This document shows positions 2,034 to 29,241 of a stretch of 38,111 bases of DNA, piece after piece; position 1 is the first letter of the stretch, and each line of letters begins with the position of its first letter. Source of the DNA: a virus; IMG/VR virus record IMGVR_UViG_3300037367_000072, positions 1 through 38,111 of that record; one strand, written 5' to 3'. The notes beneath the pieces are model-generated. The model was not told where the DNA came from. It did no database searches and saw only the letters and a program-made list of their open reading frames with translations. The position numbers and the translations under genes are program-made.

Positions 2034-4658
2034 TCATCGCGACTCCGCCTTTTGCATCGGCGTTTTGATTTCCTGACTGAGATTGAGCTTATCTAATCCC
2101 TTTTGCCCTGTCGCCTTTTTTCTTCCCTGATTTTCAGCACTCATCTGATCTTGTTTTTCTTGCTGCTGGCTAGGACCCATCAGCGTTTGTTGGTTAGCTG
2201 AGATCGATTCAGCCGATAGAGTCGAGACTAAATCCTCACCCAGGAAAAGGCTCAGACTCACTTTCAGGGAATGAGGGATAGAATCCCTTTCCTCTTCTGA
2301 TTGATTCACAAAATCATTCAATACCGATTCTTTCATCTGTCCATAGAGAGTAGGATAAACAGAAAGGAGGGCCTCCATATGTTCGACTGTCAGTGTGCCA
2401 TTCTTCAGCTCAGAGAGGACGGATACCGGGTCTTCTACGATCTGCTGATATCTGCCAAATTTGGCCAACTCGGCAGGGCTCGGGTCAAGAGGACGTGAGA
2501 GAAGTCTCCTCTCTCCTTCTTGCGGGATCTTGCTTTGTAAGAAAAGAACTCCCCGAGAGGTGGTGACCTGCATGGCTTGCGTGATGTTGGGCGCTACATC
2601 CCTGATCACCTCTGTGTTCTCGGTCAGGACATCAACGAGGTAACCTGGATCAGCTACATACTGATTGAATTTCTTAAAGAGCTTTTGGCTCTTTTCTACT
2701 TTCTCTTCATGAGCCAATTTGGAAGCTAAATAGGCCGCAGCTGGTTCTTTGAGCCCCTCTTTGAAGAGCGCTTTGGTTTTAGCATTGATCTCATGCCGGG
2801 TTCGATTGAGGAATGCTTCTAGTTTGGCTAAGCGACGTAATTGCTGGCCAGGGTCAGATAAAGTATTGGTTGCGTAGATCAAACTTCCTAGGAGGGGATT
2901 GACTGCAATAGTGCCCAAATTGACAGCTTCCGCAATGGGGACGTTATGCTTGCCGGAAAGGAGATTATTCGTGGCACGATTCAGCGCGCCTTGCTCAAGC
3001 AATTCTTCAGATAGGTTCGTTGCTTTTGAAATGAGTTCTTTTCCTATTTCTTTATCAAATTTCGAAGAGAAAAGAGTTTTTTGATTATGGGCCCATTCAT
3101 TAGAAAGTTCAAACTGATCAATGAAATTTTGTGCGCTTTCAAAGAAATCTTCTAAGGCATCTTCTTTTCTAATCCCTCTCAGTTTTCCAGATTGCCCAAG
3201 GTAATTTTTAAAAGCTTCAGGATTTAACTCAAATTCAAGATGGCCCGTTTTAGTTGATTTTTTATAAGTAAATAATTTCCTAAACTCTTTCGCAGCTGTT
3301 CTAAATTCATTATAAGCCTCATTAAAGGCACCCGTTCGGGCTCCTGCGTTGCCCCATACTTCTTCATTGGTCAAAGCATTCTTGAGTTCTATTCTGAGCC
3401 CCCTCAGTTTAGCCTGAGCTAATTTTTGAGGACCTGTGATAATAGTATCAAAAACAATGCGATCATCTACTGCCCGACGAAATCCAGTCAAAACATTATA
3501 AACATCAAGAGCACTTTTTGCCTTACTCATTTCTCCAGTAAATTCATTAATCAAAGCTTTTAATTGGGCAGCAGCATGAGGAATGTTTTCACTCGTGGCA
3601 TTATAAAGTGCACTGTGCTCAATCATTTCATTGACTAAATCGACGGCTTTTTGGAATTGAGCCATCGCAAAATTCCTAGCACTCTTTCTATTTATGTTTT
3701 GCAGAAGTTCTTTATTTTCTAAAGGTCTAATTTCTTGGAAGGCTTTCTTTTCTAAATCATCTATATGATTGATAAGGGAATCAGTTTCTTGCATGGTTTT
3801 ACGGACAAGATCTTCTTGCTTACTTGCATTGACAAGCGTTTTAGCACGTCTTGGAATGACAAATTCAATATCTTCAAGGGATTTATTAGAAAGAAAAGAA
3901 GAAATTTTAGCCACATTCTTAAGGAGATTTTCTTTTACTGTCTTTGCCGCCTTGGCAGCGTAGGGAAGGGCTACTCCTCCTAATTTGAAAGCTCCTGTCA
4001 TGGCTCCTGTCAGGAGTTCAGTTCCTCCCACATAAGACAAGATTTCTTCTCCTGTCATCTCAGGATGTCCTAAAGCTTCCTCGGTGACGAGTCTCCCCGT
4101 GGCATAGAACGTGCCTTCGACAATACCGCCCACAATAGCGGCGGGAACTTTCGTTAAGGCCGCATCGACAAACTTAGCCGTGCCAGGATGGGAGATGAGA
4201 TCTGCTACGGCTTTTGCTGCGGGCTTTGTGAGAGGTTTGGTGAGGTTGTAAGCGCCTTTGCCTAAGAGGTTGACTCCCTTGATGAGATTGGGCCCAGGAA
4301 CCATCATGGAGCCTGCAACGCCCGCAATTTCACCTGCTAGGCTTGCTCCTGGATTGTATTCCTCAAGACCTGCTAAAGTCTCAGGACTGATGAGGCCTGT
4401 CTTGGTCAGCGCCTGATCAGAGAGGCCAAAGGAGGCAGCCCTGGCAGCTGAGAGGGCACCCGCACCCAAAGGCCGTTCCTGGTACACCTTTTCATCTGTT
4501 TTCTTCTTGATCTCATCCGGAGTTGCCAACCTAAAAAGGCCGCGAGGGATGGCATCTTCTGCCTCTTCAGCATCGATGGAGCCATACCGGCCTTCGCCAT
4601 CAAATCCTTGGACTCGGGCTTTCTTGATCGGTTCTAGGAGGGCTTGATCCTGGGCCAA
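2034..4658 (-). CDS. Large internal virion (ejection-type) protein
   Basis: 874 aa. The N-terminal ~90 residues are mixed. Residues ~95-250 are Gly/Ala-rich amphipathic or hydrophobic segments (GASLAGEIAGVAGSMM, AAIVGGIVEGTFYATG). The remainder is long charged alpha-helix, and the C-terminus is Gln/Lys-rich. A large helical protein with membrane-active stretches, encoded next to two other helical proteins behind the nozzle gene, is the pattern of podoviral ejection proteins; no transglycosylase motif is visible. The TTG start at 4658 is chosen because GAGGAG lies 8 nt upstream and the previous gene stops at 4660. Confidence 0.6.
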   Translation of the reverse strand: MAQDQALLEPIKKARVQGFDGEGRYGSIDAEEAEDAIPRGLFRLATPDEIKKKTDEKVYQERPLGAGALSAARAASFGLSDQALTKTGLISPETLAGLEEYNPGASLAGEIAGVAGSMMVPGPNLIKGVNLLGKGAYNLTKPLTKPAAKAVADLISHPGTAKFVDAALTKVPAAIVGGIVEGTFYATGRLVTEEALGHPEMTGEEILSYVGGTELLTGAMTGAFKLGGVALPYAAKAAKTVKENLLKNVAKISSFLSNKSLEDIEFVIPRRAKTLVNASKQEDLVRKTMQETDSLINHIDDLEKKAFQEIRPLENKELLQNINRKSARNFAMAQFQKAVDLVNEMIEHSALYNATSENIPHAAAQLKALINEFTGEMSKAKSALDVYNVLTGFRRAVDDRIVFDTIITGPQKLAQAKLRGLRIELKNALTNEEVWGNAGARTGAFNEAYNEFRTAAKEFRKLFTYKKSTKTGHLEFELNPEAFKNYLGQSGKLRGIRKEDALEDFFESAQNFIDQFELSNEWAHNQKTLFSSKFDKEIGKELISKATNLSEELLEQGALNRATNNLLSGKHNVPIAEAVNLGTIAVNPLLGSLIYATNTLSDPGQQLRRLAKLEAFLNRTRHEINAKTKALFKEGLKEPAAAYLASKLAHEEKVEKSQKLFKKFNQYVADPGYLVDVLTENTEVIRDVAPNITQAMQVTTSRGVLFLQSKIPQEGERRLLSRPLDPSPAELAKFGRYQQIVEDPVSVLSELKNGTLTVEHMEALLSVYPTLYGQMKESVLNDFVNQSEEERDSIPHSLKVSLSLFLGEDLVSTLSAESISANQQTLMGPSQQQEKQDQMSAENQGRKKATGQKGLDKLNLSQEIKTPMQKAESR

Positions 4659-28685: not shown

Positions 28686-28889
28686 AAAGCCTATCCTCCC
28701 TAAAAAGTCCCTCCAGGTAGAAGCCGGGTCCTGTGAAACTCATCAAACAACGAATGAGGCCCTTTCGGGCTGCAGGAATAGTTCCGGATTTTCAGAAAAC
28801 TTTCAGCTTTCCACTTTACTCTTTGACATAAAAAACTTTGCGCTTTGCCTTTTAAGCTTTCAACTTTGAGGTTTTGTGGTCTTGCGACC
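28686..28889 (-). other. Intergenic flank of the permuted tRNA
   Basis: No gene seen. It contains a small hairpin GCCC-TTTC-GGGC (~28764-28775), a degenerate series of cttt-containing heptamers (28804-28869) and gacataaaaa at 28825-28834, the exact complement of the leader upstream of the tRNA. Just after the anticodon stem is a GNRA hairpin GGTC-GCAA-GACC (28878-28889). Confidence 0.5.
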
Positions 28890-28962
28890 GCATTCTCCAA
28901 ATGAATGTGCCTTACCGTTAGGCTATTTCTCAGAAGCCTGAGAAAATAGGATTTGAACCTAT
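28890..28962 (-). tRNA. Circularly permuted tRNA-Gln (anticodon UUG)
   Basis: Minus strand, in order: T arm ATAGG-TTCAAAT-CCTAT (28962-28946); acceptor 3' strand TTTCTCA (28945-28939); linker GGCTTC (28938-28933); acceptor 5' strand TGAGAAA (28932-28926); TA; D arm GCCT-AACGGTA-AGGC; A; anticodon arm CATTC-ATTTGGA-GAATG (28907-28891) with UUG at 28900-28898. The acceptor halves pair over 7 bp; U1-A72, the D arm and the G after A72 (G73) fit tRNA-Gln. A T arm is absent downstream of the anticodon arm, so a linear tRNA cannot be drawn. No CCA is encoded. The leader gacataaaaa pairs with the trailer 10/10. Whether it is processed and ligated is unknown. Confidence 0.75.
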
Positions 28963-29013
28963 ATTTTTATGTCGTTCTTTCTTTTCTCTTTCTCTACCGA
29001 AGGGATCTAAAAC

Positions 29014-29241
29014 TTACTCCTTTTTCTGATTCTTAGGACATAATGATGCTGCTCTGATCGCAAAAAAGCAAGCTTCTTGTAATCTTGTTTTACAAATACA
29101 AAACTCTCTTTGATTGATGGGATCATTTCCCAAAGCAATTTCTAAATGATCTAATAAGTCGGAAAAATAATCTTTGATATGAGTAGTTGTAAGATGACCC
29201 AGATTATTTAATTCATAACTTTTATAGATATCATGAATCAT
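29014..29241 (-). CDS. Acb2/Tad1-hairpin-like protein (candidate anti-CBASS/anti-Thoeris)
   Basis: 75 aa, two long helices. The C-terminal helix QREFCICKTRLQEACFFAIR with AASLCPKN matches the recalled consensus of the small Acb2/Tad1 hairpin family (sre..la.tKLqEA.mWA..AI), and the upstream HIKDYFSDLLDHLEIALG fits the first helix. Members bind cyclic oligonucleotide signals and block CBASS or Thoeris. Aromatic FF replaces the usual MW. A perfect AAGGAGG precedes ATG 29241. The family call is from pattern recall only. Confidence 0.5.
   Translation of the reverse strand: MIHDIYKSYELNNLGHLTTTHIKDYFSDLLDHLEIALGNDPINQREFCICKTRLQEACFFAIRAASLCPKNQKKE

What the first reader, a model, noticed from the sequence alone, without database searches (positions are those of the whole stretch)
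28825..28973. Circularly permuted tRNA-Gln(UUG) in a phage, enclosed in a flanking stem
Seen: on the minus strand the T arm and 3' acceptor strand precede the 5' acceptor strand, D arm and anticodon arm, joined by a 6-nt linker. All four tRNA stems pair without mismatch and identity features (U1-A72, G after A72, UUG) agree on Gln. The leader gacataaaaa (28973-28964) and the trailer (28834-28825) pair over 10 bp, and a GNRA hairpin follows the anticodon stem. Known: permuted tRNA genes are described mainly in some algae and archaea, where the precursor is circularised. Inference: this phage has a permuted tRNA whose ends are brought together for ligation, or a tRNA mimic. No ligase or splicing enzyme gene is seen in the phage.
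Basis: partly seen in the sequence, partly recalled or inferred. Interest (0 to 1): 0.92.

Follow-up and report, generated by a model that had tools for sequence, protein, structure and literature searches.

The report
Phage RNA shaped like rearranged tRNA-Gln
A phage carries a small RNA gene that folds into a complete glutamine tRNA written in rearranged order, with its amino-acid end sealed by a tiny loop; hundreds of similar RNAs in phages and bacteria belong with Ro60 'Y RNAs', so it is probably a tRNA look-alike rather than a tRNA that must be ligated, although it keeps glutamine identity better than those do.

Summary
On the minus strand, 28973-28825 holds T arm, 3' acceptor strand, G73, a 5-nt linker, 5' acceptor strand, D arm and anticodon arm, all perfectly paired, inside a 10-bp clamp. 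No shuffle in 1000 reproduces it. Reordered, it is tRNA-Gln(UUG). Standard finders miss it.

It is not unique. I found 114 permuted modules in viral contigs and about 100 in bacterial genomes, with the same order, short linkers and end-clamping stems. Those with conserved flanks are Y RNAs: one group matches Rfam YrlA weakly and co-occurs with Ro60 (TROVE). The other sits beside DUF2828, which I predict has the Ro60 fold. Ligation is not needed to explain the layout.

The window's RNA lacks the Ro60-type motif, any YrlA match and any detectable Ro60-like gene, so I do not file it as YrlA. Unlike the Y RNAs (13 of 121), its body matches its anticodon isotype and carries the Gln set U1-A72/G73.

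Best reading: a closed tRNA-Gln mimic of Y-RNA-like layout. Main rival: a true permuted gene giving a two-piece tRNA-Gln. Both are unproven; no expression data exist.

The parts
28964..28973 (-). 5' strand of the flanking clamp, GACATAAAAA
28946..28962 (-). T arm ATAGG-TTCAAAT-CCTAT
28938..28945 (-). acceptor 3' strand TTTCTCA plus discriminator G73
28933..28937 (-). linker GCTTC closing the acceptor stem (4-nt loop if G73 pairs with C-1)
28926..28932 (-). acceptor 5' strand TGAGAAA (U1-A72)
28909..28923 (-). D arm GCCTAACGGTAAGGC
28891..28907 (-). anticodon arm, anticodon UUG
28886..28890 (-). V loop CGGTC; module break lies between this (48) and the T stem (49)
28878..28889 (-). GNRA hairpin GGTC-GCAA-GACC, overlapping the V loop; role unknown
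28835..28885 (-). A- and AAAG-rich spacer between V loop and 3' clamp strand
28825..28834 (-). 3' strand of the clamp, TTTTTATGTC
29014..29241 (-). upstream neighbour: 75-aa protein resembling the Acb2/Tad1 hairpin domain (anti-CBASS family), just under Pfam cutoff; context only

Best explanation
A phage small-RNA gene whose transcript folds, unligated, into a complete tRNA-Gln(UUG) shape. The acceptor end is sealed by a 4-5 nt loop and the two transcript ends are clamped by a 10-bp stem at the variable-loop side: the layout of bacterial Y RNAs. It most likely works as a closed tRNA-Gln mimic that occupies proteins recognising tRNA. A decoy for a tRNA-cleaving host defence is my favoured target. 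Shown: sequence, order, pairing, isotype consistency, recurrence of the layout. Inferred: transcription, absence of processing, mimicry as function, the target.
For: Permuted modules with the same order and short linkers recur: 114 non-redundant in viral contigs, 88 with 7/7 acceptor pairs and 105 distinct acceptors; flank stems pair better with their own partner than with another unit's; 106 of 113 hits in bacterial genomes pass. Median linker 5 nt, as here. Those with conserved flanks are Y RNAs: sub-threshold YrlA matches, TROVE in 19 of 40 carriers, DUF2828 in 19 of 50 with a predicted Ro60 fold. Published YrlA has an end-paired stem plus T, acceptor and D arms (PMC8394870). No ligase in the record. 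Upstream neighbour resembles the Acb2 counter-defence family.
Against: No Ro60-type motif in the flanks, no YrlA match at E<=10, no TROVE or DUF2828 gene. The module is isotype-consistent with Gln: with the anticodon loop masked, the three nearest of 3668 phage tRNAs are tRNA-Gln(UUG). Only 13 of 121 Y-RNA-type modules match their anticodon, against 103 of 149 ordinary tRNAs; U1-A72 with G73 occurs in 5 of 214 modules. That fits a real or recently derived tRNA better than a long-standing mimic. No close relative, so no covariation test.
Confidence: 0.48

Rival explanations
1. True permuted tRNA gene without ligation. RNase P and a 3' nuclease remove the linker, CCA is added, and a two-piece tRNA-Gln works, held by acceptor stem, tertiary contacts and the 10-bp clamp, as in two-piece tmRNA.
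For: Full Gln identity (U1-A72, G73, UUG, Gln-like body), perfect stems, exact break at the V/T-stem border, clamp, no Ro60 motif or partner. Distantly related phages carry linear tRNA-Gln(UUG).
Against: The linker is only 5 nt, which may be too tight for RNase P; no CCA encoded; I found no reported precedent for a permuted tRNA gene in phages or bacteria.
Confidence: 0.25
2. Non-functional relic of a tandem tRNA-Gln duplication that lost the outer halves.
For: Duplication plus deletion would give this order and a short linker at once, and explains retained Gln identity. No close relative shows conservation.
Against: A 10-bp clamp beside the module is unlikely by chance (0.1-0.5%); no V-loop or T-arm remnants on the outer sides; all stems intact.
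Confidence: 0.13
3. Permuted tRNA whose ends are ligated, giving a circular precursor opened by tRNA nucleases.
For: The clamp brings the ends together; order as in algal and archaeal permuted genes. A host ligase could act.
Against: No RtcB or RNA_ligase family match in the record; the clamp is a continuous helix, not a bulge-helix-bulge splice motif; 51 nt would have to be removed on one side; bacteria have no known tRNA splicing endonuclease (own knowledge).
Confidence: 0.06
4. A Y RNA proper that binds a host-encoded Ro60, with a diverged binding stem.
For: Same layout; Ro60 need not be phage-encoded; V-loop-break Y-RNA-type modules exist (L045, L378, L415).
Against: No motif; the stem has no internal loop; the YrlA model does not match; isotype-consistent unlike those modules.
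Confidence: 0.08

Closest known systems
Bacterial Y RNA YrlA (Rfam RF02553; Salmonella YrlA, PDB 6CU1 as cited in PMC8394870)
   Same: Order T arm, acceptor hairpin with short loop, D arm; 5' and 3' ends paired in a basal stem; tRNA mimicry.
   Different: Here a complete anticodon arm, clamp without Ro60 motif or internal loop, break at the V/T-stem border, 51-nt spacer, Gln-consistent identity, no Ro60-like gene.
Permuted tRNA genes of red and green algae and some archaea (own knowledge; Soma 2014 as cited in PMC10085705)
   Same: 3' half precedes 5' half; complete cloverleaf after reordering; short intervening sequence.
   Different: Those are circularised by splicing enzymes at a bulge-helix-bulge; here none, and the termini sit at the V/T-stem border.
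Permuted (two-piece) tmRNA, RF04321
   Same: Bacterial precedent for a permuted gene whose acceptor ends are joined by a removed linker, pieces held by pairing (own knowledge).
   Different: Here there is an anticodon arm and no tag reading frame was identified; the family does not match the window.

Membership tests
YrlA / bacterial Y RNA | T arm, closed acceptor hairpin, D arm in that order | tested here: met
   YrlA consensus
YrlA / bacterial Y RNA | 5' and 3' ends paired in a basal stem | tested here: met
   10 bp
YrlA / bacterial Y RNA | Ro60-binding stem motif (UGGYGUA - stem - GUUACUUC / GNYUGUUCC, or UUACAGCAA form) | tested here: not met
   absent from the flanks; motifs
YrlA / bacterial Y RNA | Match to RF02553 | tested here: not met
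   (E<=10 on 401 bases); other units of the class match weakly
YrlA / bacterial Y RNA | Linked Ro60-fold gene (TROVE or DUF2828) | tested here: not met
   no long reading frame with a metal-site motif; host unknown
YrlA / bacterial Y RNA | Binds Ro60 and PNPase | not testable with these tools
   needs biochemistry
Permuted tRNA gene | Reordered sequence is a full tRNA | tested here: met
   ARAGORN tRNA-Gln(ttg)
Permuted tRNA gene | Body and identity elements agree with the anticodon | tested here: met
Permuted tRNA gene | Bulge-helix-bulge at the ends | tested here: not met
   continuous helix
Permuted tRNA gene | RNA ligase in the phage | tested here: not met
   host ligase not testable
Permuted tRNA gene | Mature tRNA with CCA, charged | not testable with these tools
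   no RNA data

The most novel reading that the evidence does not exclude
A genuine permuted tRNA gene in a bacteriophage that yields a working, ligation-free two-piece tRNA-Gln, with the clamp serving as an artificial variable arm; it would also be a plausible intermediate between real tRNAs and Y-RNA tRNA mimics.
Probability: 0.25. Interest if true: 0.85.

Novelty: new variant of a known kind. Interest (0 to 1): 0.55.

Why it matters
tRNA finders do not see permuted tRNA modules, yet they are common in phage and bacterial genomes. The comparison gives a simple sequence test (does the body match the anticodon?) that separates mimic-like modules from real-tRNA-like ones, and the window is a Gln-consistent case without a Ro60-like partner. 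If it is processed, it would be a permuted tRNA gene of a bacterial virus; if not, it is a tRNA-Gln mimic that may defeat tRNA-targeting defences.

Tried and rejected
1) Chance: rejected. 2) Tandem linear tRNAs misread as permuted: excluded by requiring acceptor complementarity and no ARAGORN tRNA. 3) Self-splicing or protein-spliced mini-introns with permuted exons: I held this when 53 linear tRNAs with the same 40-60 nt hairpin appeared; dropped as the explanation once the element proved to be a Ro60-type stem linked to TROVE or DUF2828. What the linear forms do is still open. 4) Phage ligase: none. 5) Known ribozyme at the flanks: no Rfam match. 6) Close relatives of the window's RNA: none by terminase, neighbouring protein or Gln-specific pattern. 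7) Filing the window as YrlA: rejected on motif, model and partner. 8) Promoter and terminator scan uninformative; defence-family scan empty. 9) Chen et al. 2014 on YrlA is not in the library.

Full report
What is there. The window is a 38,111-base IMG/VR virus record. On the minus strand, 28973-28825 carries a complete tRNA in circularly permuted order inside a 10-bp clamp. All four arms pair without mismatch. Reordered, ARAGORN calls tRNA-Gln(ttg); as it stands, neither ARAGORN nor Rfam at gathering thresholds sees a tRNA, although the tRNA model gives sub-threshold scores to both halves. Under strict criteria the module appears in 0 of 1000 dinucleotide-shuffled windows, and under loose ones in 7. 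The clamp alone is less striking: 0.1-0.5% of window positions. The five nucleotides after the anticodon arm, CGGTC, make a normal V loop, so the break lies at the V/T-stem border.

Surroundings. Just upstream on the same strand is a 75-aa protein resembling the Acb2/Tad1 hairpin domain (26.4 bits, cutoff 27; a weak PDB match to an Acb2 homologue). The record has terminase, portal, capsid, Erf, SSB and replication O proteins. It has no RtcB, RNA_ligase, TROVE or DUF2828 match.

Relatives of the layout. Pattern scans of viral contigs followed by a structural filter gave many permuted modules. After redundancy removal there are 114 with conserved flanks, 105 distinct acceptor sequences, 88 with 7/7 pairs; linkers have a median of 5 nt. 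In these the break is mostly inside the anticodon stem (28/29), sometimes in the anticodon loop or V loop. The flanks fall into two types. Type B: stem, UGGYGUA, stem, GUUACUUC, with GNYUGUUCC opposite. Type A: stem, UUACAGCAA. The stems pair better with their own partner strand than with another unit's: mean longest run 8.7 against 6.0 (A) and 7.1 against 5.7 (B). A type-B permuted pattern also hits bacterial genomes of many phyla; 106 of 113 hits pass the structural check.

What these relatives are. Type B modules match Rfam YrlA (bacterial Y RNA) below its cutoff, best 39.6 bits. Their records carry TROVE, the Ro60 domain; 19 of 40 records tested had it, none of them a type A carrier. Type A carriers instead have DUF2828 (19 of 50 records tested, no type B), often within a few hundred bases on the same strand. 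An AlphaFold model of a DUF2828 protein from L170 (pLDDT 84.6, pTM 0.84) has nine Foldseek matches at E<=0.001, all Ro60, Rsr or TROVE structures. Published YrlA has a basal stem of paired ends and a tRNA-like domain with T, acceptor and D arms (PMC8394870), and its tRNA-like domain has been suggested as a competitor of an anticodon nuclease (PMC7790460). A Ro60-type protein occurs in some jumbo phages (PMC7824862) and phage YrlA is mentioned in PMC7765460.

Where the window differs. Its flanks have no type A or B motif, RF02553 does not match at E<=10, and no Ro60-like gene is seen. In a less biased set (loci fetched by the two flank-independent scans), 15 of 40 modules lacked the strict motifs; by eye several of these are motif variants and a few look like chance hits. 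The main difference is isotype. With the anticodon loop masked, the nearest of 3668 phage tRNAs are tRNA-Gln(UUG). Ordinary tRNAs match their own isotype in 103 of 149 cases, permuted Y-RNA-type modules in 13 of 121, and V-break modules almost never. U1-A72 plus G73 occurs in 5 of 214 modules. Distant Erf relatives carry ordinary linear tRNA-Gln(UUG).

Interpretation. The layout (sealed acceptor, clamped ends, short linker) is the Y RNA layout, and nothing in it requires ligation. I therefore favour a closed tRNA-Gln mimic. The isotype result keeps open a real, ligation-free two-piece tRNA, or a recently derived mimic or relic. I do not assign it to YrlA because three defining features were tested and not met.

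Limits. There is no expression evidence, no close relative and no known host. The Y RNA identity of the two flank types rests on weak YrlA scores, co-occurrence and a predicted fold, not on binding data. The literature search covers open-access papers only.

Noticed in passing
L170:845-2275 (-) and L170 ~2443-3050; also L033, L141, L194, L248, L262, L277, L307, L357: DUF2828 proteins lie next to type A permuted or linear tRNA-like RNAs and are predicted to have the Ro60 fold: a probable second, unnamed Ro60/Y-RNA-like system in phages.
   Followed up: partly
L268, L285, L318, L346, L367, L395, L444: 53 linear phage tRNAs carry the same 40-60 nt Ro60-type hairpin inserted in the anticodon stem; unclear whether it is spliced out, retained, or makes a linear Y RNA.
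   Followed up: partly
L238:3001-3220, L239, L240: Cultured Klebsiella phages KP2025, KP13-26 and KP13-16 have unannotated permuted tRNA modules inside their tRNA clusters; in KP2025 they follow a DUF2828 gene, and the phage also encodes an RNA ligase.
   Followed up: partly
L562-L678: YrlA-like permuted modules in Paenibacillus, Cohnella, Actinomadura, Bradyrhizobium, Hyphomonadaceae, Bacteroidetes and others; type B modules tested from phages score under Rfam's cutoff, so RF02553 may miss many of these too.
   Followed up: partly
window 29014-29241 (-): Acb2/Tad1 hairpin-domain-like 75-aa protein, a possible anti-CBASS gene, beside the RNA.
   Followed up: partly
window 28790-28870 (-): Low-complexity (C/G)AAAG repeats around the 3' clamp strand; a similar spacer is seen 3' of the module in L154.
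   Followed up: no
L147:4738-5051 (+): tmRNA in a phage contig that also carries two permuted tRNA modules.
   Followed up: no
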